From positions 24,225 through 62,205 of the forward strand of contig NZ_ANAX01000202.1 in NCBI RefSeq assembly GCF_000341065.1: a stretch of 37,981 nt of DNA, given 5' to 3'. A program made the translations under genes and the position numbers. The DNA is from Nocardiopsis halotolerans DSM 44410. Its GTDB lineage: Bacteria > Actinomycetota > Actinomycetes > Streptosporangiales > Streptosporangiaceae. Below the pieces are notes generated by a model, which saw only the letters and a list, made by a program, of their open reading frames with translations, did not search any database and was not told where the DNA came from. Shown in pieces: positions 2,939 through 34,930 of the stretch (its first letter is position 1; each line of letters opens with the position of its first letter).

Positions 2939-3030
2939 CGGATCAGCCAGACTTGACCCACACCCCGCTCAGAACCTTCAGCAGTACCCCTCAGCGCCCC
3001 TCAGCGGCACACCCCTTCGGAAGGACCCCG

Positions 3031-5040
3031 GTGAATTCGAGTACCCACCAGGAGATGGTGAGTTTCATCTGGTCGGTCGCGGACCTGCTCCGCGGCGACT
3101 ACAAGCAGTCCGAGTACGGCAAGGCCATCCTGCCGTTCGTCGTGCTGCGGCGGCTGGACTGCGTCCTGGAGCCGACCAAGCAGAAGGTCTTGGAGGCTCA
3201 CGAGAAGTTCCGGGACAAGCCCGTCCACAACGAGTTCGTGCTGCGGGCCTCGGGGCACAGCTTCTACAACACCAGCCCGCTCACCTTCGAGCGCATCGCC
3301 GCCGACCCCTCCCAGGCGGCCAACAACCTCACCCACTTCATCAACGCCTTCTCCGACAACGCCCGCGAGGTGCTGGAGAAGTACGAGTTCCCCCGCCAGA
3401 TCCAGCGGCTGGACAACGCCGGGCTGCTCTACCAGGTGGTGGGCAGGTTCGCCGACCTGAAGCTGTATCCGGAGCGCGTCTCCAACGTGCAGATGGGCTA
3501 TATCTTCGAGGAGCTCATCCGCCGTTTCTCCGAGATCTCCAACGAGACGGCCGGTGAGCACTTCACCCCCAGGGAGGTCATCAAGTTGATGGCCAACCTG
3601 CTGTTGGCCCCCGACGAGGATTCCCTGCGCGGTCCCGGTGTCATCAAGGAGATCCTGGACCCGGCCTGCGGTACCGGCGGCATGCTCACCGAGATGCACG
3701 ACCACATCACCGGCCTGAACCCCGACGCCACCGCGGTCGTGTTCGGCCAGGAGCTCAACCCCGAGTCGTGGGCGATCTGCCGGTCCGACCTGATGATCAA
3801 GGGCCAGGACCCCAAGAACATCCGGTTCGGCAACTCCTTCAGCGACGACCGGCACCGGTACGCCAAGTTCGACTACATGCTGGCCAACCCGCCGTTCGGC
3901 GTGGAGTGGAAGAAGGCCAAGGAGGAGGTCGAGGCCGAGCACGAGCTGGGCTCCTCGGGCCGGTTCGAGGCGGGGCTGCCGCGCATCAACGATGGGTCGC
4001 TGCTGTTCCTCCAGCACATGATCTCCAAGATGAAGCCGGTCAAGCTCGACGAGGATGGAGAGAGGCGGGGTGGTAGCCGGATCGCCATCGTCTTCAACGG
4101 CTCGCCGCTCTTCACCGGGGCGGCCGGGTCGGGTGAGTCCGAGATCCGCCGGTGGATCCTGGAGAACGACTGGCTGGAGGCGATCGTCGCCCTGCCGGAC
4201 CAGTTGTTCTACAACACCGGCATCTCCACCTACTTCTGGGTGCTGAGCAACCGCAAGGACCGTGCCCATGAGGGTCGCGTGATGCTCATCGACGCTCGCG
4301 AACACTGGACCAAGATGCGCAAGTCCCTGGGGGAGAAGCGCAAGGAGATCAGCGCTGAGCAGATCACCGAGCTGACGCGGTTGTACGCGGACGCGTTGGG
4401 TGTGGCTGACGATTCCGAGCATCCGCTGCGCGGCAAGGTGAAGGTCTTCCGCAACGAGGACTTCGGTTACCAGCGCATCACTGTGGAACGGCCGCTGAAG
4501 CTGCGCTTCGAGGTCACTGAGGACACCTTGGTGGAGTTGACCGCCGCACTGGACAAGGGCAAGACCACTGCCAAGTACGAGCAGAAGGCGGAGCTGGTTG
4601 AGGCTCTGCGGTCGCTGGTGGGCGGTGAGCCGTGCTTCAAGAAGACCGAGTTCGCAGACCGTATTCAGCAGGCGCTTGCCGAGGGCGGGGTGTCCAAGCC
4701 GTCGACGGCTGTGATGAAGGCCATGTGGAACGCGGTGTCGGTGCGTGACCCCGAGGGCGAGGTACAGAAGAAGAAGGGCGAGCCGGAGCCCGACGTGGAC
4801 CTGCGCGACTTCGAGAACATCCCGCTAGGTGAGGACATCGACGTCTATATGGAGCGGGAAGTACTGCCGCACGTGCCCGATGCCTGGGTGGACCATTTGA
4901 AGACGAAGATCGGCTACGAGATTCCCTTCACACGGTATTTCTACGTGTACACGCCGCCACGGCCGCTTGAGGAGATCGACGCGGAGCTCAAGGAGCTTGA
5001 GTACGAGATCCAGCGACTCCTGGGAGAGGTGACGAATTGA
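3031..5040 (+). CDS. hsdM: Type I restriction-modification system methyltransferase subunit HsdM
   Basis: The M subunit of a type I restriction-modification enzyme transfers a methyl group from SAM to adenine and forms the M2S core of the complex. The GTG start at 3031 follows GGAAGGA by five bases and gives 669 residues; an ATG eight codons later is an alternative. The N-terminal helical HsdM_N domain (residues about 9-170, including SFIWSVADLLRGDYKQSEY) precedes the N6_Mtase domain, with motif I DPACGTGGM from residue 210 and motif IV NPPFG from residue 286. The C-terminal third carries the extra helical tail of the longer HsdM family. The stop codon overlaps the TTG start of hsdS, so expression is coupled. 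All key catalytic residues are present and the gene looks intact. Confidence 0.95.
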   Translation: MNSSTHQEMVSFIWSVADLLRGDYKQSEYGKAILPFVVLRRLDCVLEPTKQKVLEAHEKFRDKPVHNEFVLRASGHSFYNTSPLTFERIAADPSQAANNLTHFINAFSDNAREVLEKYEFPRQIQRLDNAGLLYQVVGRFADLKLYPERVSNVQMGYIFEELIRRFSEISNETAGEHFTPREVIKLMANLLLAPDEDSLRGPGVIKEILDPACGTGGMLTEMHDHITGLNPDATAVVFGQELNPESWAICRSDLMIKGQDPKNIRFGNSFSDDRHRYAKFDYMLANPPFGVEWKKAKEEVEAEHELGSSGRFEAGLPRINDGSLLFLQHMISKMKPVKLDEDGERRGGSRIAIVFNGSPLFTGAAGSGESEIRRWILENDWLEAIVALPDQLFYNTGISTYFWVLSNRKDRAHEGRVMLIDAREHWTKMRKSLGEKRKEISAEQITELTRLYADALGVADDSEHPLRGKVKVFRNEDFGYQRITVERPLKLRFEVTEDTLVELTAALDKGKTTAKYEQKAELVEALRSLVGGEPCFKKTEFADRIQQALAEGGVSKPSTAVMKAMWNAVSVRDPEGEVQKKKGEPEPDVDLRDFENIPLGEDIDVYMEREVLPHVPDAWVDHLKTKIGYEIPFTRYFYVYTPPRPLEEIDAELKELEYEIQRLLGEVTN

Positions 5041-6287
5041 GTAGGTATGGGGGATTTTTGGATGTTGCCATCAAGTATGTCTGTCGAGTCAGGTATGGTC
5101 TTGGCCAGCCGCCGAAGCTGAGTGATTCTGGTGTGCCAATTATTCGAGCCACAAATATTAGTCGGGGGAAAATTGATTCCCGGGGTATGATTTATGCAGA
5201 CGTTGCAGATATTCCCCTGGATCGAGCTCCTTTGCTTCATGCTGGAGAAGTGCTGGTTGTTCGAAGCGGGGCATATACTGGCGACTCTGCAATCGTGACG
5301 GAAGAATGGTCTGGGAGCGCCCCTGGGTACGATCTAAGACTTACTCCAGAAGGGGTTGACTCCAGATATTTGTCCTATTCTATGTTGAGTGCTGGAGTGC
5401 TTCAGCAAATTGACGTAGACAAGAGTCGGGCGGCGCAACCTCATTTGAATGCCGAAGATGTAGGGAATGTTGTAATAAAACTCCCTGGGCGCGAAGAACA
5501 GCAGCGCATAGCTGATTTTCTTGATGCCAGAACTGCTGAAATAGATCTCATTCAGTGTCTTCGAAAGAAGGAGATGAGCCTTCTTCAAGAGCGTATGTCC
5601 GCGTCTCTGGTTGAAAAAGTGCTTCCTGGTTCCGACCTGCCTGGTTGGCGCAGGACTGTGGTCAAGCGCATGTTCGATACCTGCCGCTCCGGGTTTTGGG
5701 GTGAAGAGCCATCTGGTTATGAATCGGACGTTGTCTGCGTTCGTGTCGCTGATTTCAGAAGGAATAGTTATCGCGCTGGTTTGGACGCGGAGACCATGAG
5801 GTCGGTTTCGCCGGATCAGCTTCGTTTGCGGCGCCTTTCTCCGGGGGATGTACTGCTGGAAAAATCAGGTGGCGGTGAGAAGTCGCCGGTCGGTTTTGCG
5901 GTAAGCTTCGACGGTGATCGGGTTGCGGTCTGTTCTAACTTCTTGCAATTTCTGCGACCAGCGAAGGGGGTCGACTCTCGCTTTGCTGCCCTGGTGATGT
6001 CTGCCCTTTATCGGTCCTCGCGGAACATTCCTTTCATTAAGCAGACGACGGGAATTCAGAATATCGATCTCGGCGGATATCTTTCTCAGCAACTGTCGAT
6101 TCCAGATCTCCGGAGGCAGCAGGAAATCTCAATAACCCTTGACCGGGAAATTGAACTGACATCGTCGCTTGGCTCTTCAGTATCGCTCCAGATGGAGCGG
6201 ACAGAAGAACGTAAGCGCGCCCTGATCACTGCCGCTGTCACCGGTCAGATCGACGTCACCACCGCGCGAGGAGCCGACCTGCCATGA
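5037..6287 (+). CDS. hsdS: Type I restriction-modification specificity subunit HsdS
   Basis: HsdS supplies two target recognition domains that read the bipartite DNA site for the M and R subunits. This 416-residue protein shows the usual layout: first recognition domain (about 1-150), a conserved helical spacer (EEQQRIADFLDARTAEIDLI, about 155-175), second recognition domain (about 200-345), and a C-terminal helix with the conserved ending RKRALITAAVTGQIDV. The TTG start overlaps the hsdM stop and sits seven bases after GAGAGG. Base composition is strikingly lower in G+C than the genes on both sides from about 5040 to 6230, with many A/T-ending codons that are rare elsewhere in the window; it returns to high GC in the last 50 bases. 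This is what recombinational replacement of recognition domains within a conserved hsd frame would leave. The last four bases overlap the hsdR ATG. Confidence 0.93.
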   Translation: MSRYGGFLDVAIKYVCRVRYGLGQPPKLSDSGVPIIRATNISRGKIDSRGMIYADVADIPLDRAPLLHAGEVLVVRSGAYTGDSAIVTEEWSGSAPGYDLRLTPEGVDSRYLSYSMLSAGVLQQIDVDKSRAAQPHLNAEDVGNVVIKLPGREEQQRIADFLDARTAEIDLIQCLRKKEMSLLQERMSASLVEKVLPGSDLPGWRRTVVKRMFDTCRSGFWGEEPSGYESDVVCVRVADFRRNSYRAGLDAETMRSVSPDQLRLRRLSPGDVLLEKSGGGEKSPVGFAVSFDGDRVAVCSNFLQFLRPAKGVDSRFAALVMSALYRSSRNIPFIKQTTGIQNIDLGGYLSQQLSIPDLRRQQEISITLDREIELTSSLGSSVSLQMERTEERKRALITAAVTGQIDVTTARGADLP

Positions 6288-9200
6288 GTCCGGTCTACGA
6301 CGAGAGAACCTTCGAGGACCACATCGTCGCCTCGATGCTGGAGCGCGGCTGGTCCCAGGGCGCCAACCACCACTACGCCCCCGAACTCGCCCTGGACACG
6401 GCGGAGCTCACCGCCTTCCTCGGCGCCACTCAGGCCGACGCCTTCGAGGAGCTCGTCACCCGCTGCGGCGGCTCCCGGGAGCAGGCCCAGGCCACCTTCG
6501 CCAAGACCCTCGCCAAGCGCATCGACACCGAGGGCACCCTCCATGTCCTCCGTCAAGGCGTCACCGTCGAGGGCCTGAAGTTCCGGCTCGCCTACTTCAA
6601 GCCCTCGCACACCATCGCCGAGAACGCCCTCGCCGACTACGAGGCCAACCGGCTCACCGTCACCCGGCAGCTCCGCTACGCGGCCAAGGACGGCGACCAG
6701 GGCCGCGCCCTGGACCTGGTGCTGTTCGTCAACGGCCTGCCCGTGGCCACCGCCGAGCTCAAGAACCCCCTCACCGGGCAGAACGTCAACCACGCCAAGC
6801 ACCAGTACGCCCACGACCGCGACCCCCGCGAACTCCTCTTCACCAAGCGCACCCTCGTCCACTTCGCCGTCGACCCGGACCTGGTGTTCATCACCACCAG
6901 GCTCGCCGGGAAGGACACCCGCTTCCTGCCCTTCAACACCGGCTCCGAAGGTCCCGGGCACACCGGCGGCGCGGGCAACCCGCTCCCGGCCTCGGACGCC
7001 TCCGGCTACCGCACCGCCTACCTGTGGGAGACGGTCTGGAACGTCGACAACTGGCTGGACCTGCTGGAGCGGTTCGTCCACGTCAAGCGTGACAAGGACG
7101 ACAAGGGGCGCAGGCGCGAGACCGTCATCTTCCCCCGCTTCCACCAGTGGCACGCCGTGCGCGGCCTGGTCGACCACGCCGCCCGGCACGGAGCCGGAAA
7201 CAACTACCTGATTCAGCACTCGGCCGGTTCGGGCAAGTCCAACACCATCGCCTGGCTCGCGCACCGGCTCTCCTCGCTGCACACCCCCGCAGACCCCGAC
7301 CTGATGGACCCGGCCGCCGTCGCCAAGGGCTTGGAGCCCAACACCCCCGTCTTCGACAAGACCGTCATCATCACCGACCGGTCGGTCCTGGACCGCCAGC
7401 TCCAGGACACCGTCGGCGACTTCTCCCAGGTGGAGGGCCTGGTCGGGCGGATCGGCGGCAAGGGCGGCTCCAAGTCCGCCCAGCTCGCCGAGGCACTGTC
7501 CACCTCCTCCAAGCGCATCATCGTCGTCACCCTCCAGACCTTCCCCGCGCTGCTGGACTACCTCAAGCGCGAGCCCACCGAGATCCGCGGCAGCCGGTTC
7601 GCCATCGTCGTCGACGAGGCGCACTCCTCCCAGAGCGGCGAGGCAGCCAAGGACGTCAAGAAGGCCCTGCGGGACCTGGGCCTGGACGCCGACGACGACA
7701 CCGACGGGACCGAAGGCACCGAGAGTGAAGGCAACGCGGCCGAGGGCGCCTCCGTCCCCAAGTCGACGGAGGACGCCCTGTTGGAGTCGGCCTCTTACCG
7801 GGGCCGCAGCGCCAACCTGTCCTACTTCGCCTTCACCGCGACCCCCAAGCACAAGACCCTCAACCTGTTCGGTGTGCGAAGCGAGGCCACCGGCCTCTAC
7901 GAGCCCTTCCACACGTACTCGATGCGTCAGGCCATCGAGGAGGGGTTCATCCTCGACCCCCTGCGCAGCTACATCACCTACGCCACCCAGTACCGGCTGC
8001 TCAACGGCAACACCGACGATCCCGAGGTCGACGCCACCAAGGCCAAATCCCAGCTGGCCAGGTTCGCGCTGCTGCACGACTCCACGCTCGCCCAGCACGC
8101 CGAGACCATCATCGAGAACTTCAACGCCGTCACCCGGCGGCAGATGGGCGGCCGGGCCAAGGCCATGGTCGTCACCCGTTCCCGCGAGGCGGCCCTGCGG
8201 ATGTACCGGGCGGTCGAGAGTTACCTGAAGGACAGCGGAGTTCCCGACCCCGGTGTCCTGGTCGCCTTCTCCGGAACGCTCAAGGACCCCAGGAGCGGTG
8301 AGGAGGTCTCCGAGCCCGCCGTCAACGGGTTCCCCGAGACCGAGCTGCCCAAGCGCTTCGCCGCCACCCGAGCCGACGATCCCGCGGCCGTCACGCGCAA
8401 CGGCAAGGAGTACCGCCTGCTCATCGTCGCCGACAAGTACCAGACCGGCTTCGATCAGCCGCTGCTGACCACGATGTTCGTGGAGAAGTCGCTCAAGGGC
8501 GTGGCGGCCGTACAGACCCTGTCCCGGCTCAACCGCACGCATCCGCTCAAGTCCCAGAGCGATCTGCGGGTGCTGGACTTCGCCAACGACGCCCAGGAGA
8601 TCAGGGAGGCCTTCCGGCCCTACTACGAGCAGGCCGTCACCGCCGAGGCTGATCCCGACATCCTCCACACCATCGCCCACCGGGTCATGAGTGAGGCCAA
8701 CGTGCTGGTCAGGGACGAACTCCAGGGGTTCGCCGACGCCTTCCACGAGCTGGAGGTCCAGCCCGGAACCGACAACCTCAAGAACCACCCCGAGCTCAAC
8801 CGGTTCACGGCCCCGGCCGTCGAGCGCTTCGCCGCGCTGATGGAGAGCGAGGAGGAGGACGAGCGCACCGACGCCGACCGCTTCCGCGCCGACCTGAACG
8901 ACTACGTCACCAAGTACGCGTTCCTCTCTCAGATCATGCGTTACCCGGACGCCGACCTGGAACGGCTCTACCTGTACGGACGCTTCCTGCTGCGGGTGCT
9001 GCCCGCGCGTAAGGACGGCGGGGTGGACGTCGGCGAGGTCGACCTCAGTCACCTGAAGCTGTTCCGCAAGGCCGAGGACGATCTGAAGCTCAGCCCCGAG
9101 GGCGACCAGGAGCTCCCCGGGTTCTCGGACGGGACCGGCAGCGCCTACGACCCCAAGAAGGAGCTTCTGTCGGAGATCATCGAGATCTTCAACGAGCACT

Positions 9201-9487
9201 TCGGCCATGACCTCAGCGAGGCCGACCGGCTCATGATGGAGGAACGCCTCCAGACGGTCATGGACAACCCCGAGGTCGAGATGGCCGCCGTCAACAACGA
9301 CGAGGGCGCCTTCCGGCACAAGTTCGACCCGGCGATGAAGGAAGCGGTCATGGACCGCTACGAGAGCGGCGTGGAGTTCACCGAGCGCTACATCGGTGAG
9401 CAGGACTTCCAGGACTCCATCAACCGGGCCATGAGCCGGGCCGCCTACCGGCTCCTGCGCCAGCGCAACGGCCTCAGCGGCACCTGA
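6284..9487 (+). CDS. hsdR: Type I restriction endonuclease subunit HsdR
   Basis: HsdR is the ATP-dependent translocase and nuclease of the type I enzyme and cuts unmodified DNA away from the recognition site. The 1067-residue protein has a PD-(D/E)xK nuclease domain with D144, E158 and K160 (LDLVLFVNGL then TAELKNP), a Walker A loop GSGKS with K318, a DEAH box at 444-447, further SF2 helicase motifs (FAFTATPKHKT; DKYQTGFDQPLL; LSRLNRTHP) and a helical C-terminus that contacts M and S. Its ATG lies within the hsdS stop (ATGA), so M, S and R are translated as one unit. No frameshift or missing motif was seen, so the system is probably active. A strong hairpin follows 25 bases after the stop. 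Confidence 0.95.
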   Translation: MSPVYDERTFEDHIVASMLERGWSQGANHHYAPELALDTAELTAFLGATQADAFEELVTRCGGSREQAQATFAKTLAKRIDTEGTLHVLRQGVTVEGLKFRLAYFKPSHTIAENALADYEANRLTVTRQLRYAAKDGDQGRALDLVLFVNGLPVATAELKNPLTGQNVNHAKHQYAHDRDPRELLFTKRTLVHFAVDPDLVFITTRLAGKDTRFLPFNTGSEGPGHTGGAGNPLPASDASGYRTAYLWETVWNVDNWLDLLERFVHVKRDKDDKGRRRETVIFPRFHQWHAVRGLVDHAARHGAGNNYLIQHSAGSGKSNTIAWLAHRLSSLHTPADPDLMDPAAVAKGLEPNTPVFDKTVIITDRSVLDRQLQDTVGDFSQVEGLVGRIGGKGGSKSAQLAEALSTSSKRIIVVTLQTFPALLDYLKREPTEIRGSRFAIVVDEAHSSQSGEAAKDVKKALRDLGLDADDDTDGTEGTESEGNAAEGASVPKSTEDALLESASYRGRSANLSYFAFTATPKHKTLNLFGVRSEATGLYEPFHTYSMRQAIEEGFILDPLRSYITYATQYRLLNGNTDDPEVDATKAKSQLARFALLHDSTLAQHAETIIENFNAVTRRQMGGRAKAMVVTRSREAALRMYRAVESYLKDSGVPDPGVLVAFSGTLKDPRSGEEVSEPAVNGFPETELPKRFAATRADDPAAVTRNGKEYRLLIVADKYQTGFDQPLLTTMFVEKSLKGVAAVQTLSRLNRTHPLKSQSDLRVLDFANDAQEIREAFRPYYEQAVTAEADPDILHTIAHRVMSEANVLVRDELQGFADAFHELEVQPGTDNLKNHPELNRFTAPAVERFAALMESEEEDERTDADRFRADLNDYVTKYAFLSQIMRYPDADLERLYLYGRFLLRVLPARKDGGVDVGEVDLSHLKLFRKAEDDLKLSPEGDQELPGFSDGTGSAYDPKKELLSEIIEIFNEHFGHDLSEADRLMMEERLQTVMDNPEVEMAAVNNDEGAFRHKFDPAMKEAVMDRYESGVEFTERYIGEQDFQDSINRAMSRAAYRLLRQRNGLSGT

Positions 9488-21235: not shown

Positions 21236-22837
21236 GTGCACGCCACACCCGAGCGGATCGCCGACCGGTACGAACTCGTCGACACCATCAGCACCGGTGG
21301 CATGGGCCGGGTCTGGCGCGGCTACGACACCGTGCTCGACCGGCCGGTCGCGGTCAAGGTGATCCGCCCCGACCTGGTGGCTGACCCCAGGCTCTACGAC
21401 GAGTACGCCGACCGGTTCAGGCGCGAGGCCCGCGTCACCGCCCGTATCGAGAGCCCGGGCGTACCGGCCGTCTACGACGCCGCCGTGGACAAGGACAAGG
21501 GCTCGCTGTACCTGGTGATGCAGCTGGTGCGCGGCGTCTCCCTCGCCGACACCATCGACGAGAGCGCCCCGATGCCGGTGCCCGCGGCCGCGGCGGTCGC
21601 CGCCCAGGTGTGCGCGGCCCTGGCCGAGGCCCACGCGGTCCCCGTCGTCCACCGCGACCTCAAGCCGGGCAACATCATGGTGGCCGACGACGGCACGGTG
21701 AAGGTCCTGGACTTCGGGATCGCCGCCGTGCTGCGCACCGACGTCACCCGCCTCACCCACACCGGCAGCATGCTGGGGACCTACGCCTACATGCCTCCCG
21801 AACAGGTGCGCGGTGCGCCCGCCACCCCCGGCAGCGACCTGTACTCCCTGGGCTGCGTCCTCTACCAGATGCTCACCGGCCGGACCGTGTTCCCCGCCGA
21901 CTACACGCACTTCCAACTCCAGGTCGCGCACGTGGAGGAGACTCCCTCACCACCCTCGGCCCACGTGGACGGTCTTCCCGAGGACCTGGAACGGCTCGTG
22001 CTGGACCTGCTCGCCAAGGACCCCGAGGACCGGCCCGCCACCGCGCAGGACGTCCACGACCGGCTCGTTCCCCACCTGCCCCGACCCGACCCCCTCGCGC
22101 CGGACAAGCCCCTGCCGCCCGGCGCCCTGCCCGACCCCACCCGCCCCTACCGGCGTCCCGTTCCACTCCGCCCCCGGGCGACCGTGCCCTCGCCAACCAA
22201 GCCGCTGCCCTCCACGCTGGTGGATGCCACCGCGGCCACGCCCCCGATCGCCGGTCTGGCCCCCGGAGAGCTGACCGAGGCCGACGGGCACGCCCAGGCC
22301 CTCATCGGCGAGGGGCGCTTCGCCCAGGCCATCGGGGTCCTCGACGACGTGATCGACCCGGCCGTGTCCGTGCTGGGAGAGGAGTCAGCCCAGGTCGTGG
22401 AACTGCGCCTGCTGCGGGCCAACGCCCTGGCCATCAGCGGGGACGCGCGCCGCGCCCTGCCCGAGTTCACCACCCTGGCCGACATCCTCCAGCGCCAGGC
22501 CGGGCCGCAGGACGAACGCGCCCTCATCTGCCGGCAGCAGGCCGTCTACTGCATGGCGCAGCTGGGGGAGACCACCCGAGCCCTGCACGAGGCGGAGGGG
22601 CTCCTGGAGCGGTTCCGCCGGGTGAGCGGGGACCGCTCCGAGGACGTGTTGGACCTGCGCCGGGAGATGGTCCTGTGGCGGCTGCGTTCGGGAGACACCG
22701 AACGCGCCTCGTCCGAGCTGCCCGCGCTGTACTCTGACCTGCGCGCGGCCTACGGCCCCGGCGCCCCCGAGACCCGTCAGGTCGCCGACCTCCTGGACCG
22801 GCTGGGACGGGGTCGGCTGGGGCGGAGCCGGAGCTGA
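21236..22837 (+). CDS. Serine/threonine protein kinase with C-terminal TPR-like region
   Basis: The kinase domain spans about residues 9-270 of a 533-residue protein. It has a glycine loop ISTGGMGRVW, catalytic Lys 41 in VAVKVI, the HRDLKPGN loop with Asp 141, DFG at 159-161, and MPPEQVR in place of the common APE. No membrane segment follows. Instead there is a Pro-rich linker (about 285-340) and a helical repeat region (about 345-520, for example GRFAQAIGVLDDVIDPAVSV and LGETTRALHEAEGLLERF) resembling TPRs. It is thus a soluble Hanks-type kinase with a protein-interaction tail. The GTG at 21236 has AAGGGG close upstream; a GTG at 21182 after AGAGGA would add 18 residues. It is followed 48 bases later by the helicase gene, so the two may form an operon. 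Confidence 0.9.
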   Translation: MHATPERIADRYELVDTISTGGMGRVWRGYDTVLDRPVAVKVIRPDLVADPRLYDEYADRFRREARVTARIESPGVPAVYDAAVDKDKGSLYLVMQLVRGVSLADTIDESAPMPVPAAAAVAAQVCAALAEAHAVPVVHRDLKPGNIMVADDGTVKVLDFGIAAVLRTDVTRLTHTGSMLGTYAYMPPEQVRGAPATPGSDLYSLGCVLYQMLTGRTVFPADYTHFQLQVAHVEETPSPPSAHVDGLPEDLERLVLDLLAKDPEDRPATAQDVHDRLVPHLPRPDPLAPDKPLPPGALPDPTRPYRRPVPLRPRATVPSPTKPLPSTLVDATAATPPIAGLAPGELTEADGHAQALIGEGRFAQAIGVLDDVIDPAVSVLGEESAQVVELRLLRANALAISGDARRALPEFTTLADILQRQAGPQDERALICRQQAVYCMAQLGETTRALHEAEGLLERFRRVSGDRSEDVLDLRREMVLWRLRSGDTERASSELPALYSDLRAAYGPGAPETRQVADLLDRLGRGRLGRSRS

Positions 22838-22885
22838 GCCGGACGGTCGCCCGAGTCGCCCCAGCAGGAACGGAGCCCTGACCCC

Positions 22886-25024
22886 ATGCCCCAACTCGCC
22901 CTGGGAAAGCAGTTCTTCGCGAGCGGTGAGTACGACGAACTCCCCCCGTCGGCCCGGAAGAACATCCGGACCGCCATGGAGAAGTTCAGCCTGCTCACCC
23001 CCGCCGAACTCAAGGCCGACAAGGGACTCAACTTCAAGCCTCCCCAGGGGCGGCGCAACCGCAGCATCTTCACCTTCAGGGTGGACAACTTCTACCGGGG
23101 CGTGGTCCTGGCCCCCGAGAGCGGCGACAGCTACACGCTGCTCAAGGTCATGGCGCACGACGACGCCTACGACTGGGCCAACAAGCAGGACGCGGGCGTC
23201 AACCAGCTCACCGGAGCGGTGGAGATCTGGGACGCCGAGGCGTTGGAACGGGCCACCACGGACCTGGAGGGGAGGGCGGTACCGTCCGACCCGGAGCGGC
23301 AGCTGTTCGCCGAGGTCTCCGACGGCGACCTGAGGACCCTGGGCGTCACCGACAGGGTGCTGCGCGCGGCCCGTACCATCGCGGACACCGACGAACTCGC
23401 CGGTATCGTCCCGCTCCTGCCCGAGGACCAGGCCGAGGTCCTCCAGTACCTCGCCGCCGGGTTCTCCGTGGAGGAGATCTGGAGGGACATCGTCGCCCAC
23501 CGGCCCTCCGGGCCCGTCAGCGGCGACCTGGACACCGCCATCCGCAACACCCCCACCCGGATCAAGCTCGTCTCCGGACTCGACGAACTGGAGGAGATCC
23601 TCTCCCAGCCCTTCACCGTCTGGCGGACCTTCCTGCACCCGGCCCAGCGCAAGGTCGCCTACAAGGCCAGCTATCCCGGCAGCTACCAGGTCACCGGAGG
23701 CCCCGGCACAGGCAAGACGGTGGTGGCCATGCACCGAGTCCACCACCTGCTGTCCTACCTGCGCTCCGACGAGCGGATCCTGCTGACCACCTTCACCAAC
23801 ACGCTCGCCTCCGCGCTGAGGGAGGGTGTGCGACAGCTGACGGACGACCCCGCACGGCTGGAGCGGCTCGACGTCACCACGGTCAACGCCCAGGCCGCCG
23901 AGGTCCTCACCGAGGTCGCCGGGGGCGCAAAACCCTCCTACGTCAACGACACCCAGGAGTTGGAGCGCTGGCGCGCGCTGGTGGAGGAACGCCAGCTGCC
24001 GTGGACGGCCGAGTTCCTGCTCCAGGAGTACCGCCACGTCGTCCTCGCCCAGCGCATCGACACCCTCCCCGAGTACCTGTCCGCCACCCGCCGCGGACGA
24101 GGACGACCCCTGAACGAGGACCAGCGCACCCGGGTGTGGGAGGTGGTGTCCGCCTTCACCGACCGGCTGGCCGCCGACGGCCTGCGCACGCAGTTGCAGG
24201 CGTGCGACGAGGCCGCGCGTGCCCTGGAGGAGAAGGGGCCCCGCTACCGGCACGTGGTGGTCGACGAGGCCCAGGACCTGCACCCCGCGCAGTGGCGGCT
24301 CCTGCGCGCCCTGGTCGCTCCGCGCCCGGACGACCTGTTCATCGCGGGCGACCCCCACCAGCGCATCTACGACTCGAAGGTCTCCCTCAAAACGCTCGGC
24401 GTCAACGTCGTGGGGCGTTCGCAGCGCCTGCGTCGCAACTACCGCAGCACCCAGCAGATCCTCACCTGGGCCGGACCGCTGCTGGCGGGGGAGAGGGTGG
24501 AGGCCCTCGCGGACGGGGGCACCGAGTCCCTGTCCGGGTACCGCTCGGCCCTCCAGGGCCCCAGGCCCACCACGCACGCGGCCACCGGCCAGAGCGAGGA
24601 ACTCGACGTGCTCGTGGACACGGTGCGCTCCTGGATCGACGGGGGAGTGGAGCCGGCGTCCATCGCCGTCGCGGCCCGCTTCAACTCGGCCGCGCGGCGG
24701 GCGGTCAACGCCCTGACCGAGGCGGGCGTCCACGCCCGCGAGCTGCGCACGGCGGGCCCGGACGATCCGGGCGTACGCGCGGGGACGATGCACTCCCTCA
24801 AGGGACTGGAGTTCCGGTGCGTGGCCGTCATCGGCGTCAACGACGGCGCCGTGCCCTACGCCCGGGGCGTCACCCCCGAGGAGGTGGACCCCCTCCAGCA
24901 CGAAGCCGACCTGATGGCCGAACGCTGTCTGCTCTTCGTGGCCTGCACCCGGGCGCGGGACCACCTGCACGTGTCGTGGTCGGGGCGGCCGAGCCCCTTC
25001 CTCGCCGAGGCGGACATCGCCTGA
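22886..25024 (+). CDS. UvrD-like SF1 helicase with N-terminal RelE/ParE-like domain
   Basis: The C-terminal part of this 712-residue protein is an SF1 helicase. It has Walker A GGPGTGKT with Lys 277, a DEAQD motif II from Asp 460, RLRRNYRST as motif IV, the late motif TMHSLKGLEFRCV and the ending LLFVACTRARDHLHV. The first 95 or so residues are different: they look like a RelE/ParE toxin fold (a Q-F-F helix start, SARKNIRTAMEKF, IFTFRVDNFYRGVVLAPE, LLKVMAHDDAYDWA). Such fusions occur in bacteria and may pair a nucleic-acid binding or ribosome-binding module with the motor. The kinase gene upstream could regulate it. All helicase motifs are intact; a role in DNA repair or phage defence is inferred. 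Confidence 0.9.
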   Translation: MPQLALGKQFFASGEYDELPPSARKNIRTAMEKFSLLTPAELKADKGLNFKPPQGRRNRSIFTFRVDNFYRGVVLAPESGDSYTLLKVMAHDDAYDWANKQDAGVNQLTGAVEIWDAEALERATTDLEGRAVPSDPERQLFAEVSDGDLRTLGVTDRVLRAARTIADTDELAGIVPLLPEDQAEVLQYLAAGFSVEEIWRDIVAHRPSGPVSGDLDTAIRNTPTRIKLVSGLDELEEILSQPFTVWRTFLHPAQRKVAYKASYPGSYQVTGGPGTGKTVVAMHRVHHLLSYLRSDERILLTTFTNTLASALREGVRQLTDDPARLERLDVTTVNAQAAEVLTEVAGGAKPSYVNDTQELERWRALVEERQLPWTAEFLLQEYRHVVLAQRIDTLPEYLSATRRGRGRPLNEDQRTRVWEVVSAFTDRLAADGLRTQLQACDEAARALEEKGPRYRHVVVDEAQDLHPAQWRLLRALVAPRPDDLFIAGDPHQRIYDSKVSLKTLGVNVVGRSQRLRRNYRSTQQILTWAGPLLAGERVEALADGGTESLSGYRSALQGPRPTTHAATGQSEELDVLVDTVRSWIDGGVEPASIAVAARFNSAARRAVNALTEAGVHARELRTAGPDDPGVRAGTMHSLKGLEFRCVAVIGVNDGAVPYARGVTPEEVDPLQHEADLMAERCLLFVACTRARDHLHVSWSGRPSPFLAEADIA

Positions 25025-29299: not shown

Positions 29300-30883
29300 A
29301 TGTTCACCCAGGGCCGCCTGACCCGAGGCCAGGGAACCGATCCGCGACGGATGCCGTTCGCCGTCCTGGACGTGGAGACCACCGGGCTCGACCCGCGCGG
29401 GGGCCACCGGATCTGTGAGGTCGCGGTGGTGCGCATGCGCGGCGACGGCACGGTCGTCGACGAGTACGCGACCCTGGTCGACCCCGGACGTCCCCTCACG
29501 GGGGAGGAGTTCCACGGCATCACCGCCGCCCAGGCGGCCGACGCGCCCGCCTTCGCCGACATCGCCGGTGACCTGATCGCCTACCTGTCCGACGCGGTGG
29601 TCGTCGCGCACAACCTGCCCTTCGAGGAGGGGTTCCTCGAAGCCGGGTTCGGTGCCCTGGGCATGCGCCCCTCCGGACTGCCGGGGCTGTGCACGCTCCA
29701 GGCCTTCCGCACCCACCTGGACCGGTACGCCTACCGCCAGCACCAGCTCTACCAGCTGATGACCGGCGAGTGGATGCAGGGACAGCACCACGCGCTGGCC
29801 GACGCCCGTCACCTCGCCCGCATGCTGTCGGTACTGGTGAACGAGAGCCCCCAACCGCTCGCCTGGGTCGGGCCCGGGCCGGTGCCCGCGCCGCCGGTGC
29901 CCCGCAGCGGGCGGATCGCTCCGCGTACCACCGGTCTCCGCAAGGGACGGGAGGGCTGGCTGGCCAACCTGGCCGCCGGACTGCCCGACATGAACCCCTC
30001 GCCCCACCCCAACCTCCAGGGCGTGGCCGCCTACCGTTCCATGCTGGGGCACGCCCTCACGGACGGGAGGATCGTCGGAGACGAGGCTCAGCAGCTCGCC
30101 CTGCTCGCCACCCGGGCGGGGTTCACGCAGGCCACGGTGCGCCGGGTGCACGAGGAGGTCCTGCTGGAGGCCCGCGCCCGCGCCGAGGCCGACGGGCGGG
30201 TGACCTCCACCGAACTCCGGGAGCTGGAGAAGGCCGCGAGGAACCTGGGAGCGGGGCACGTCATCCAGGACCTGCTCTACGTCGCCGACCAGGAGAAGGC
30301 GCGCAGGAACGGCCCGCTCCGAGGCTGGCGCGTCGTGCCGGTGGGGGAGAGCGGGCCGGTGAGCGCGGTCGTGGACTTCGCGGTGTCCCACGGCGCGACC
30401 GTCGGGGTGAACGTCACCAAGACCGTTCGGCTGGTCATCGCCGAACCGGCGGCGGACGACGTGAAGGTCCACAGGGCCCGCGAGGCGGATATCCGGGTGG
30501 TGACCCCGGCCGAGGCCTGGGACCTGCTGAAGGCGGCCGTCGACGGGGCGGAGCGCGGTCTGTTCGACGACGGAACCGGCGCGGTGGTCGCCGCCCAGCT
30601 CCGGGCCGAGCACCAGGAGGAGAGGGACGGCAGGGCCTGGCAGACGTTCTGGCGGCCCCGGGAACTGACCGATCGGCAGTACCACGAGCAGTTCGTCGCA
30701 CCCTTCGAGCGCCGCGACCATACGGCGGCGTACGCGCGCCGACCGGATCGGGGACCCCGGAAGATCAACGCCAGCATCCCGGTGGAGGCGCGGAAGGAGG
30801 GCGGCGGCTGCGCGGGCGCGGTGCTGCTGTTCATGGCAACGGGCACGGCGGTCGCGGCCCTCACCCAGCTCTGGCCCCTCTAG
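29300..30883 (+). CDS. DnaQ-like 3'-5' exonuclease fused to TerB-like, BRCT and C-terminal membrane segments
   Basis: The 527-residue protein starts with a DEDDh exonuclease domain (about 19-180): Exo I LDVETTGLD with Asp 24 and Glu 26, Exo II around VVVAHNLPFEEGFL, and Exo III H163/H164 with Asp 168 in HHALADARHLA. Next comes an acidic helical region resembling TerB/TerB-N (about 235-320, LGHALTDGRIVGDEAQQLAL and ARAEADGRVTSTELRELE, two EF-hand-like turns). A BRCT-like segment follows (about 338-412, PVSAVVDFAVSHGATVGVNV then TKTVRLVIAE). The last 20 residues form a hydrophobic helix (GAVLLFMATGTAVAALTQLW) that could anchor it to the membrane. Stand-alone exonucleases with TerB/BRCT parts are common in actinobacteria and linked to DNA damage or stress responses. 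The gene looks intact. Confidence 0.88.
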   Translation: MFTQGRLTRGQGTDPRRMPFAVLDVETTGLDPRGGHRICEVAVVRMRGDGTVVDEYATLVDPGRPLTGEEFHGITAAQAADAPAFADIAGDLIAYLSDAVVVAHNLPFEEGFLEAGFGALGMRPSGLPGLCTLQAFRTHLDRYAYRQHQLYQLMTGEWMQGQHHALADARHLARMLSVLVNESPQPLAWVGPGPVPAPPVPRSGRIAPRTTGLRKGREGWLANLAAGLPDMNPSPHPNLQGVAAYRSMLGHALTDGRIVGDEAQQLALLATRAGFTQATVRRVHEEVLLEARARAEADGRVTSTELRELEKAARNLGAGHVIQDLLYVADQEKARRNGPLRGWRVVPVGESGPVSAVVDFAVSHGATVGVNVTKTVRLVIAEPAADDVKVHRAREADIRVVTPAEAWDLLKAAVDGAERGLFDDGTGAVVAAQLRAEHQEERDGRAWQTFWRPRELTDRQYHEQFVAPFERRDHTAAYARRPDRGPRKINASIPVEARKEGGGCAGAVLLFMATGTAVAALTQLWPL

Positions 30884-33012: not shown

Positions 33013-34350
33013 TCAGGGGAGCGGCGCGGTCTCCTGAACACCGAGCTCCGCGGCGACGGCGGGTAGGTCCCACTCGGCGGCGTAGCGGCTGAACAGGTCC
33101 AGCAGCTCTCCCCGCCGCTCGGGCCGGAACGAGTCGGGGTCGCACACCAGGTCGGGGAACTCCCGCACCATCCGCCTCCACGACAGGCCCTCGCTCATCG
33201 CGTGACGCAGTCGTGCCACCTGCCAGGTCATGAGGTTGTGGTGTTCGAGTTTGCGCTGGGGGGTGCGCCGCCGGGGAGTGGGGACATCGCGTCCGGCCGC
33301 GGCCAGCGCCTGTCGGCGCAGCAGACACGAGGTGCAGCCGCCGCAGTGCGGATGCGTGCTGCCGCCGCTGCCGTGATGGGCGAACCCGGTGTCGCAGGAG
33401 ATCGTCTCCGCCAGGAGCTTGTCGTACTCGTGCTCGGCGGGCACCCGCCGCACCATCTCGGCCTTGGTGAGGTGGAAGCAGCGGTTCTCGATGCTGAAGG
33501 GCGCCCTGGTGATGCCCTCGGCGAGGCGCTCCATGTACCGGAGCGTCTTGGGGTGGACGGCCCGCGCCGTCTGCGCACCGACCTGGCCACGGGAGAGCGC
33601 GAGGTTGAGGGCGCCGGGACCGTTCTCGTACAGGCGCAGCGAGTCCTTTCCCAGGGCGATGGCCGAGACGACCCCTGCCGCCAGGAACACGAACCCGCGT
33701 GTGCGCACGGTGTCCTCGGTGTTGTTCATGTGTACCTGGAGGGTGAAGGAGAGCAGACCGCGCAGCCGCGGGAGGGAGGAGCGCAGTCCGTGGAAGACAC
33801 GTGACTGGAGATGGTGCATCCGGTTGTTGGTGCTGACCGACACCGCCGACAGTTGGTCTCCGGAGGAGCGGAGGTCATCGATCATGCCGCTGACCGAGTC
33901 CAGTCCGCCGGAGAAGAGCGCGGCCTCCCCGATCAGCTCCGACATCTCCAGATCCAGACTCTGCTTTCGGTAACTGAGGACTTCTCCCCGGAGGAACTCC
34001 AGCTTCCAGGCATCCGCCGTCAACCATTCCAGCAGGTCCTCGACATGGTCGGCGTGCGCGGACCACCATTCGGGGTTCTGTACGGGTACGGAGGCCCTGA
34101 TCGTGCGCGACCACTCCTGGCCGCTGCGCCATTTGTGGCGAGCGGGTCGTCTGAGGTTACGGTCGACGGCCATGCACGAGGCTGCGATCCACCACAGGTC
34201 GGCGGCGAGGCTCCTCTCGTCCAGGAGGGAACCGAAGAGATCGGGGATCGTCGCGGTGAGGGCGCCGCTCTGGTCGAACACCCCGGCCTCTCCTGGTCCG
34301 GGCCCGCCGTCGGAGCGGAAGGTGACGGACGTGGTCCTCTCGTCGGACAC
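33013..34350 (-). CDS. QueC/QatC-like PP-loop enzyme of a probable defence system
   Basis: The 445-residue protein has an N-terminal extension of about 140 residues rich in Trp, then a PP-loop ATPase core with SGGLDS at 147-152 (LFSGGLDSVSGMIDDL). It also has a C-terminal Cys cluster C319, C336, C339 and C342 (ISCDTG, then HCGGCTSCLLRRQAL), the zinc site of the QueC family. QueC makes 7-cyano-7-deazaguanine; QatC of the Qat anti-phage system and Cap9 of type IV CBASS are longer relatives used in defence. The N-terminal extension and about 70-residue helical tail fit the defence-type proteins better than housekeeping QueC, and no QueD/QueE/QueF genes are nearby. The GTG start follows GAGGAG by five bases and lies 16 bases after the stop of the partner gene, so the two form an operon. 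The exact reaction is not known from sequence. Confidence 0.82.
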   Translation of the reverse strand: MSDERTTSVTFRSDGGPGPGEAGVFDQSGALTATIPDLFGSLLDERSLAADLWWIAASCMAVDRNLRRPARHKWRSGQEWSRTIRASVPVQNPEWWSAHADHVEDLLEWLTADAWKLEFLRGEVLSYRKQSLDLEMSELIGEAALFSGGLDSVSGMIDDLRSSGDQLSAVSVSTNNRMHHLQSRVFHGLRSSLPRLRGLLSFTLQVHMNNTEDTVRTRGFVFLAAGVVSAIALGKDSLRLYENGPGALNLALSRGQVGAQTARAVHPKTLRYMERLAEGITRAPFSIENRCFHLTKAEMVRRVPAEHEYDKLLAETISCDTGFAHHGSGGSTHPHCGGCTSCLLRRQALAAAGRDVPTPRRRTPQRKLEHHNLMTWQVARLRHAMSEGLSWRRMVREFPDLVCDPDSFRPERRGELLDLFSRYAAEWDLPAVAAELGVQETAPLP

Positions 34351-34366
34351 GGAAACTCCTCGGGGG

Positions 34367-34930
34367 TCAGCGGAGGAAGGGCTGGATCAGGGCACGGAGG
34401 ATCGCTGTACCGAAGGTGAGGTCGGCGAGTTCGAGAAAGTCCAGGGCGTCCTCGACGCCGGGGGCGTCCCCCTCTCCGAAGGGGGCGATACGGTCCAGGC
34501 CGTAGCGCCGCAGTGCTCCGAGAACGAAGTGCTCACCGACCAGTTCGGCGAGCTCCTCGGCCTCCATCCCCACCAGATCGGCGGGGTCCTCACTGGACAG
34601 AACGACACTGACGGCCTGGTTGAGCAGCGCCTGCATTCCCGAGGCCCGTGTGCCCGCGCACAGGTCCACGGAACGCGGCCCCTTGTCCCGTATGCGTTCG
34701 GCCAGCGCCCTGGTCTGATAAGCGGCTTTCCACAGGTCGGGCTTGCCGAGTTTGTCGGTGATCTGTTCGAGGGCCCTCTCGGCCCTGTCCTTGGCGGTGT
34801 TGAGGGGGAGTTCCGCCTGCCGGGGCTCTCGGCCTTCCTCCCGGGTGCGGGCGGCCAGGTCCCTGAGCTCACCGCACAGGGGATCGAGGGTACGTACGCG
34901 GTCGCGGGTGTGTCGGTCGTCGTCGGGCAC
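34367..34930 (-). CDS. Unrecognised helical partner of the QatC-like enzyme
   Basis: From the GTG at 34930 (GAAGG seven bases upstream) the protein has 187 residues; the frame is open further up to an ATG at 35059, but that part is low-complexity and lacks a ribosome site. The product is helical and acidic at the C-terminus (DKLGKPDLWKAAYQTRALAE, SSEDPADLVGMEAEELAELV, DALDFLELADLTFGTAILRA). It has no membrane helix and no motif I know. It directly precedes the QatC-like gene, the slot taken by qatB in Qat operons, and QatB is also a helical protein of unknown fold. I could not align it with QatB by eye. No QatA-like ATPase or QatD-like nuclease is present in the window. Confidence 0.65.
   Translation of the reverse strand: MPDDDRHTRDRVRTLDPLCGELRDLAARTREEGREPRQAELPLNTAKDRAERALEQITDKLGKPDLWKAAYQTRALAERIRDKGPRSVDLCAGTRASGMQALLNQAVSVVLSSEDPADLVGMEAEELAELVGEHFVLGALRRYGLDRIAPFGEGDAPGVEDALDFLELADLTFGTAILRALIQPFLR

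What the first reader, a model, noticed from the sequence alone, without database searches (positions are those of the whole stretch)
33013..34930. Two-gene QatC-like operon with an unrecognised partner
Seen: a PP-loop protein with SGGLDS and a four-Cys zinc site, carrying a long N-terminal extension and a helical tail, 16 bases downstream of a helical 187-residue gene. Known: QueC relatives with such extensions occur in the Qat anti-phage system (QatABCD) and in type IV CBASS (Cap9). Here no QatA ATPase, QatD nuclease, CBASS cyclase or queuosine pathway gene is present. Inference: a minimal or alternative deazaguanine-type defence module whose second component is undescribed.
Basis: partly seen in the sequence, partly recalled or inferred. 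Interest (0 to 1): 0.75.

Follow-up and report, generated by a model that had tools for sequence, protein, structure and literature searches.

The report
Two-gene relative of Qat phage defence
A pair of neighbouring bacterial genes is a distant, stripped-down relative of the Qat anti-phage pair QatB and QatC, with a different conserved protein start and an altered enzyme pocket; most relatives in the sample also carry a protease and a nuclease-like gene, a combination for which no description was found.

Summary
Window 33013-34350(-) encodes a 445-aa QatC relative (PADLOC QatC E=1.1e-52). 16 bases upstream, 34367-34930(-) encodes a helical 187-aa partner without a trusted family match. No KAP ATPase (QatA) was found in the genome; its only TatD match is on another contig.

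The partner is probably not a new fold: for a better-modelled relative, QatB takes the top two structural ranks (Z 7.9, 7.8 over 162-167 residues). But it is not plain QatB. QatB's MGTS start and long tail are replaced by a short tail starting MPD-x-D (22 of 24 in one enzyme clade, Pro2 in 23). In 19 of 24 a HTH-M78 protease gene follows, in 18 also a PIN-like gene. The window sits in the subclade (5 of 5) that lacks both and has lost the two pocket hydroxyls (Thr278/Thr280 of QatC; Ala/Ala here).

Deazaguanine chemistry is not supported: the window genome has no QueE match and no TGT.

Best reading: a minimal QatB/QatC-type pair in a defence island, the enzyme engaging, perhaps modifying, the partner's N-terminal proline with an unknown donor. 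Defence and chemistry are untested.

The parts
34367..34930 (-). partner gene, 187 aa, helical, starts MPDDDRHT; probably a remote QatB-type protein with a short N-terminal tail
34916..34930 (-). codons 1-5 of the partner (M-P-D-D-D), the most conserved stretch of the family; P at position 2 instead of the Gly of QatB MGTS
34351..34366 (-). 16-base gap between partner and QatC-like gene (same strand, likely one transcript: inference)
33013..34350 (-). QatC-like PP-loop enzyme, 445 aa
   Evidence: PADLOC QatC E=1.1e-52, NCBIfam QatC 189.9 bits, below its cut-off of 280, Pfam QueC 30.5 bits, cut-off 22, solved QatC chains
33895..33912 (-). SGGLDS ATP pyrophosphate loop, residues 147-152
33550..33579 (-). 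GAQTARAVHP, residues 258-267: QatC loop whose Thr278/Thr280 positions are Ala262/Ala264 here
   Evidence: function of the Thr pair from PMC13279940
33325..33396 (-). zinc-site cysteines C319, C336, C339, C342
31902..32984 (+). convergent neighbour with HSDR_N domain, 360 aa; not shown to belong to the pair
   Evidence: E=9.9e-12
29300..30883 (+). DEDDh exonuclease protein, PADLOC candidate PDC-S48; not shown to belong to the pair
   Evidence: E=3.7e-240

Best explanation
The two genes encode a minimal QatB/QatC-type pair. Shown or well supported: the enzyme is a QatC relative that keeps the ATP- and zinc-binding residues; the partner belongs to a family whose extreme N-terminus (MPD-x-D) is its most conserved part; in a relative it probably has the QatB fold; the pair sits among restriction and other defence-type genes without QatA. 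Inferred: as proposed for QatBC and shown for Cap9-CdnD in the literature, the two proteins form a complex in which the partner's N-terminus, with Met removed because the next residue is Pro (known rule of methionine aminopeptidase, recalled), lies in the enzyme's active site, where a carboxylate is activated with ATP and joined to the N-terminal residue, switching the partner into an anti-phage state. The donor is probably not 7-carboxy-7-deazaguanine. In most relatives a HTH-M78 protease and a PIN-like protein form an output or control arm, perhaps tied in through a conserved C-terminal tail of the partner; the window's subclade has dropped that arm and the tail and works, if at all, with the core pair alone, as QatBC can.
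For: QatC identity. Pair in 9 of 297 genomes of the order, window's own included, partner start MPD[DQ]D in 9 of 9; invariant partner columns M1, P2, D3, D5 and four others; in a 16-row set M1 and D3 are invariant, P2 and D5 in 15 of 16, at 26% mean column identity. Tree of 116 QatC-like sequences (quick method): the 24 with an MPD-type partner form one side of one branch (SH-aLRT 94), the window in a 5-row subclade (100). For the L049 partner model QatB is rank 1 and 2 of 709 aligned chains (Z 7.9, 162 residues, rmsd 4.6; Z 7.8, 167 residues, rmsd 4.9); ranks 3 to 11 cover 75-86 residues. For the window model QatB is rank 2 and 5 of 784 (Z 4.0 and 3.9, 125 and 122 residues). ATP and Zn residues kept. 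QatBC alone defends against lambda-vir, and the N-terminal Gly motif and the QatC active site are needed (PMC13279940, parts 1-3 read). Surroundings: type I RM genes, PDC-S48, BREX-type genes beside the pair in G055, a Schlafen-type helicase gene beside it in G224.
Against: No experiment was done. The window partner's model is middling (pLDDT 75, residues 1-19 under 50) and its QatB match (Z 4.0, behind an unrelated chain at 4.1) would mean little alone. VIA warns that Z under about 13 for helical proteins may be a common arrangement. Foldseek gave no match with E<=0.001 for either model. Profile comparison with QatB found nothing (prob 0.4%) and only prob 73.5% with the MGH class. The window enzyme has Ala/Ala where QatC has Thr/Thr, a change that abolished defence in P. 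aeruginosa qatABCD (PMC13279940), so it could be altered or dead. N-terminal proline is a secondary amine and a less usual acceptor than glycine (general chemistry, recalled). The short tail may not reach the active site in the QatBC arrangement; no complex could be modelled.
Confidence: 0.6

Rival explanations
1. Deazaguanylation as in type IV CBASS: the enzyme joins 7-carboxy-7-deazaguanine to the partner's N-terminus.
For: QueC-family fold; Cap9 does this (text of PMC13279940; start of the abstract of PMC11996544 in the listing). Three of the nine MPD hosts tested (G046, G243, G296) carry neighbouring PTPS and QueE matches. The window genome has a PTPS (QueD-type) match.
Against: TGT in 0 of 15 host genomes, control 14 of 14. 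QueE profile TIGR03365: no match in G000, G224, G264, G118 and only weak partial ones (E about 3.5e-4) in G055 and G211, i.e. 6 of 9 MPD hosts without a credible QueE (only one QueE profile was used; none of the 15 and only 1 of 14 controls passes its curated cut-off, so E-values were used, control 10 of 14). Tyr/Asp that bind the base are absent; the two positions are Ala/Ala in the window.
Confidence: 0.12
2. The conserved N-terminus is not modified; it plugs the QatC-like active site or forms the interface as an inhibitor or sensor, and the enzyme acts on another, free substrate or not at all.
For: Pro2 and acidic D3/D5 could act as a plug; both pocket hydroxyls are lost in the 5 two-gene rows; what QatC catalyses is unresolved even for QatBC (PMC13279940).
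Against: QatB G2D abolishes defence (PMC13279940), which favours a chemical role there, though bulk alone could explain it; SGGxDS, the Zn site and Arg216/Arg218 are kept in all five rows, so ATP chemistry is likely.
Confidence: 0.2
3. A decaying remnant of a larger Qat-type operon without function: M78/PIN arm and pocket residues are lost.
For: Absence of two genes, of the partner's C-terminal tail and of two pocket hydroxyls in one subclade.
Against: Five genomes of two genera keep both frames open, the MPD start and the ATP and Zn residues; end branches of the subclade (0.26-0.48) are ordinary.
Confidence: 0.1
4. A metabolic amide ligase pair unrelated to defence (for example antibiotic biosynthesis).
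For: Actinomycetes use QueC-like enzymes in nucleoside antibiotics (recalled).
Against: Rare and patchy (9 of 297 genomes), beside restriction, BREX-type or M78/PIN genes, PADLOC QatC.
Confidence: 0.05

Closest known systems
QatB-QatC core of the qatABCD anti-phage system
   Same: QatC-type enzyme with N- and C-terminal extensions, ATP loop, Zn site; helical partner gene directly upstream; conserved partner N-terminus with a small second residue; probable QatB fold in a relative
   Different: no QatA or QatD; MPD-x-D instead of MGTS; QatB residues 64-287 align to 9-198 of the relative's model, so the tail is short; Thr278/Thr280 are Ala/Ala; NCBIfam QatC cut-off not reached
Type IV CBASS Cap9 with CD-NTase
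   Same: QueC-family enzyme thought to act on a partner's N-terminus
   Different: Cap9 is short (median about 185 aa, PMC13329287) and keeps Tyr/Asp for the deazaguanine; partner here is no CD-NTase by Pfam
RosmerTA (RmrA M78/ImmA antitoxin with diverse toxins)
   Same: the HTH-M78 proteins of two four-gene relatives score as RmrA (E=4e-24 and 7.5e-25)
   Different: not found beside the window pair; in relatives it follows a QatB/QatC-like pair and precedes a PIN-like gene
Canonical QueC (preQ0 synthase)
   Same: PF06508 core
   Different: TIGR00364 16.5 bits against a cut-off of 150.3; host has no TGT match

Membership tests
qatABCD system | QatC-family enzyme | tested here: met
   PADLOC QatC E=1.1e-52, solved QatC chains
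qatABCD system | NCBIfam QatC equivalog cut-off (280 bits) | tested here: not met
   189.9 bits
qatABCD system | QatA KAP NTPase | tested here: not met
   0 matches in the window genome and in 4 of 4 two-gene relatives (G224, G046, G055, G211); found beside qatB in canonical host G196, and on other contigs in four-gene host G118
qatABCD system | QatD TatD nuclease beside qatC | tested here: not met
   one TatD match, on contig C174, not C202; next gene is a convergent HSDR_N protein
qatABCD system | QatB sequence profile | tested here: not met
   no PADLOC QatB match for the window partner at E<=1 or the L047 partner at 0.01; a MGTS partner (L070) scores 1.5e-33
qatABCD system | QatB N-terminal MGTS | tested here: not met
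   MPDDD in the window; MPD-x-D in 22 of 24 clade members, variants MSDGD (L054) and MPTDGAD (L122)
qatABCD system | QatB fold of the partner | tested here: inconclusive
   relative L049: QatB first and second, Z 7.9/7.8, 162-167 residues, rank 3 unrelated at Z 7.0 over 75 residues; window model Z 4.0, 125 residues; no Foldseek match at 0.001
qatABCD system | QatC Thr278 and Thr280 | tested here: not met
   Ala262/Ala264
Type IV CBASS (Cap9) | Tyr/Asp nucleobase-binding pair | tested here: not met
   Ala/Ala at these positions (equivalence of positions from PMC13279940)
Type IV CBASS (Cap9) | CD-NTase gene nearby | tested here: inconclusive
   none among the 14 window genes scanned in Pfam; not all window genes scanned, not sought genome-wide
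Canonical QueC | TIGR00364 equivalog score | tested here: not met
   16.5 bits, cut-off 150.3
Canonical QueC | preQ0/queuosine pathway in host | tested here: not met
   no TGT match, no QueE (TIGR03365) match; one PTPS (QueD-type) match on another contig
any of these as anti-phage defence | protection against phage | not testable with these tools
   needs plaque assays

The most novel reading that the evidence does not exclude
The window belongs to an undescribed branch of QueC-family immunity, a 'MPD-Qat' system found in Actinomycetota, Cyanobacteriota, Chloroflexota and Acidobacteriota: a short-tailed QatB-like protein whose N-terminal proline is the acceptor of an ATP-driven conjugation by a re-tooled QatC that uses a donor other than a deazaguanine, normally coupled to an M78 protease and PIN nuclease arm through the partner's C-terminal tail. 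The window's subclade is a secondary two-gene form that has shed that arm and rebuilt its pocket.
Probability: 0.35. Interest if true: 0.8.

Novelty: new variant of a known kind. Interest (0 to 1): 0.62.

Why it matters
What reaction QatC catalyses is stated as an open question in PMC13279940 (2026). A natural branch with a different acceptor residue (Pro instead of Gly), changed pocket positions, and actinobacterial hosts of which 6 of 9 lack a credible QueE makes it testable: it argues that the donor is not a deazaguanine and gives a simple genetic test. It also suggests that the QueC-type immune core has been joined to different outputs (QatA/QatD, M78 protease/PIN, none), and that the partner's first residues track the enzyme clade.

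Tried and rejected
Direct profile comparison of MPD partners with QatB-type partners (prob 0.4%, E 0.14) failed; MPD with the MGH class gave prob 73.5%, MGH with QatB 94.7%. Foldseek against PDB gave no match with E<=0.001 for either model. A weak NACHT-N-terminal Pfam match of the partner (E=0.029, below cut-off) and an adenosine deaminase one (E=0.13) were set aside as chance. A partner-profile search over 396 genomes of the phylum found only the window genome. In the order-wide search with P0002 (7 of 297) the matches G243:C154 and G262 had no QatC-like gene in the roughly 3.4 kb read around them and were dropped. Of the 17 genomes matched by the enzyme, G030 (short fragment) and G077 (frame with stops) were not read, nor was the window genome's second, weak match (C307, E=5.4e-4). 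Plasmid records: 113 with QatC relatives, none covering 80% of the query; phage records: none; L049 partner in plasmids: none. The 9 matches besides the window genome in a class-wide search with the L049 enzyme (10 of 394) were not classified.

Limits of the sample. The MPD label came in part from a pattern search, which leans towards the motif; the nine order-level partners were read from gene context, and the tree was built from enzymes only. Of 110 loci with an enzyme match (L153-L155 gave none), 85 got a partner by pattern and 25 did not; three of those (L054 MSDGD; L055 MPDGD with a broken frame; L092 partner and enzyme in one frame at a contig end) were labelled MPD by hand. L036 and L037 were labelled MGT by hand, L037 without its partner having been seen. 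G211 and G264 were left out of the tree as duplicates of L043 and L044. Rows L053 and L092 are partial enzymes. Absence of M78/PIN, of the C-terminal tail and of the pocket hydroxyls falls in one subclade, so their correlation rests on one event; L053 has Ala at position 262 while keeping M78 and PIN.

Statements that the branch was not found in print rest in an open-licence library; it holds no bioRxiv preprints of its own and most subscription papers are missing, and supplementary tables were not searched.

Full report
The observation. The downstream one (445 aa) is a QatC relative: PADLOC QatC E=1.1e-52, NCBIfam QatC 189.9 bits against a cut-off of 280, Pfam QueC 30.5 bits, and two solved QatC sequences at E=3.9e-28 and 1.4e-26. 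The upstream 187-aa protein has no trusted family match and no solved relative by sequence (best E 0.45).

Where the partner starts. In G224 and G046 (52-53% identical) similarity begins at the GTG at 34930, giving MPDDDRHT; only the Arg codon just before is shared as well. GAAGG lies upstream.

Relatives. An order-wide search with the enzyme matched 17 of 297 genomes. Nine of these, the window genome included, carry the pair with a partner starting MPD[DQ]D; six others were read and have no such partner in view; two (G030, G077) were not read. In the nine-row alignment the partner's invariant columns are M1, P2, D3, D5, R13, G62, L119, R147.

Three partner types. Of 110 loci with an enzyme match, a pattern search of the upstream gene gave 25 with MGTS-like starts, 46 with MGH starts (partner about 260 aa, enzyme mostly 600-700 aa), 14 with MPD-type starts and 25 with none. 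Three of the last (L054, L055, L092) proved MPD-like on inspection. In a tree of 116 enzyme sequences the 24 MPD rows lie on one side of a single branch, support 94; the window groups with G046 and G224 and then with G055 and L043 (support 100 each). The MPD rows come from Actinomycetota, Cyanobacteriota, Chloroflexota, Acidobacteriota and one viral contig. Of the 24 partners 22 start MPD-x-D; L054 is MSDGD and L122 MPTDGAD.

Operon. In 19 of the 24 a HTH-Peptidase_M78 gene follows (blastp E<=1e-6, 60% coverage), in 18 also a PIN-like gene; L051's contig ends first. None of the five rows of the window's subclade has either in the stretches held. No MGT- or MGH-labelled locus has them at that threshold; the only other one is L065, a Lysobacter sister row whose partner starts MAENEY. 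Pfam, on two operons, finds HTH_3 and Peptidase_M78 at E=1e-13 to 3e-22, but PIN only at 0.0093 (below cut-off) in one and not in the other, so 'PIN-like' is tentative. PADLOC scores the M78 proteins as RmrA, the protease antitoxin of RosmerTA (passages of PMC10440598). Partners of M78-bearing loci end in a tail that mostly holds a basic, Leu-rich motif; the five two-gene partners lack it. This correlation rests on one evolutionary event.

Active site. PMC13279940 (parts 1-3 of 6 read) reports that QatC has Thr278/Thr280 where QueC and Cap9 have the Tyr/Asp that bind the deazaguanine, and that T278A/T280A abolishes defence. By the alignment (chain 9zee_B, whose numbering agrees with the residues the paper names) these are residues 262 and 264 of the window enzyme. 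Counts: MGT class 262 T 27 of 27, 264 T15 S11 H1; MGH class 262 T29 S14, 264 T 43 of 43; MPD class 262 S10 T8 A6, 264 S13 A8 P2 G1, T in 0 of 24. All five two-gene rows have Ala at 262 and Ala or Pro at 264. G148, G149, D151, Arg216, Arg218, Glu242, Thr295, Lys296 and the four Cys are kept in 24 of 24; S147 in 23 and S152 in 16 (the window has both). Some QatC-cluster motifs of PMC13329287 are looser in this clade (W80 in 13 of 24, D113 in 16 of 24; the window has both).

Fold of the partner. The window model is middling (pLDDT 75), the L049 model good (84.7). For L049 the QatB chains 9y02_A and 9y01_A rank first and second (Z 7.9 and 7.8 over 162 and 167 residues, rmsd 4.6 and 4.9). Rank 3 is unrelated at Z 7.0 over 75 residues, formally tied; ranks 3-11 cover 75-86 residues, and two lower rows 121 and 132 at Z 5.2 and 4.7. 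For the window they rank second and fifth (Z 4.0, 3.9) in a list without Z over 5. QatB residues 64-287 correspond to 9-198 of the L049 model, so the long disordered QatB tail would be reduced to about ten residues. Foldseek alone saw nothing significant. I take a QatB fold as likely, because the expected protein came first with about twice the coverage, but not as proven.

Donor. TGT: 0 of 15 host genomes (control 14 of 14). QueE profile TIGR03365 at E<=0.001 (control 10 of 14; over its curated cut-off 0 of 15 and 1 of 14): of nine MPD hosts, credible in G046, G243 and G296, weak partial in G055 and G211, none in G000, G224, G264, G118. PTPS (QueD-type): absent in G224, G055, G211, G264, G118, present in G000, G046, G243, G296. 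So 6 of 9, the window's host included, seem unable to make 7-carboxy-7-deazaguanine by the known route. Of the six other QatC hosts tested, G278, G274, G065 and G210 have no QueE match, G196 a weak partial one (8e-4) and G172 two partial ones (best 1.6e-8), one of them beside its PTPS match. The point may thus extend to QatC at large.

Absent Qat genes. No KAP NTPase match in G000, G224, G046, G055, G211; the one TatD match of G000 is on another contig.

Surroundings. The window holds type I restriction genes at 2617-9487 and a further N6 methylase gene at 830-2938, a PADLOC candidate exonuclease and a HSDR_N protein. In G055 the pair follows a BrxHI helicase and a PglZ-domain protein; in G224 a Schlafen-type helicase gene lies beside it.

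Reading. A minimal QatB/QatC-type pair, nested inside an M78/PIN-bearing clade. Complex formation, N-terminal engagement and defence are inferred from QatBC; modification of an N-terminal proline is the bold part. PMC13329287 (parts 1-3 of 5 read) finds qatA and qatD beside only about a third of its QatC cluster, which leaves room for branches such as this. I found no description of the four-gene operon in the searches listed under Tried and rejected.

Noticed in passing
L050, L056, L058, L066, L125, L128, L138, L142 and others (46 loci): A third QatC class: partner about 260 aa starting MGHxRxGxLPxT, enzyme mostly 600-700 aa, no PADLOC QatB match in the one partner tested (L050). 25 of the 46 are IMG/VR contigs; by a rough pattern of my own 15 of 43 carry a serine recombinase gene (MPD 0 of 17, MGT 0 of 25), so these may be mobile two-gene cassettes.
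   Followed up: partly
L038 7942-10094 and L039 8790-10789: QatC-like genes with a Gly-rich upstream protein (MGSSGAGAGGG, MGTGSLGGGG) preceded by a gene of about 1050 aa; a possible further Qat branch.
   Followed up: no
L065 5336-9073: Lysobacter enzymogenes relative with M78 and PIN-like genes and a partner starting MAENEY, sister to the MPD clade on a long branch.
   Followed up: partly
L092 1-1311: MPDGD partner start and enzyme core read in one open frame of 436 aa at a contig end: fusion, deletion or assembly artefact.
   Followed up: no
L055 5372-5918: MPDGD partner whose reading frame is broken while the enzyme, M78 and PIN-like frames are open (read error or decay).
   Followed up: no
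L053 5848-7230: Enzyme read in two pieces (107 and 313 aa), so its frame is interrupted, with partner, M78 and PIN-like frames open.
   Followed up: no
L122 3310-7259: Four-gene MPD-type operon on an IMG/VR viral contig, partner start MPTDGAD.
   Followed up: no
L029 9243-17453: Two-gene pair downstream of BrxHI and PglZ-domain genes in G055.
   Followed up: partly
window 2617-9487: Type I restriction-modification genes (HsdM, HsdS, HsdR).
   Followed up: no
window 22819-22901: tRNA-Arg (CCT) on the minus strand at the edge of a UvrD-like helicase gene; possible attachment site of an island.
   Followed up: no
QatC MGT class, position 264 of window numbering: The second of the two threonines called invariant in QatC is serine in 11 of 27 MGT-class rows in this sample, among them Streptomyces, Nocardia and Micromonospora loci.
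   Followed up: partly
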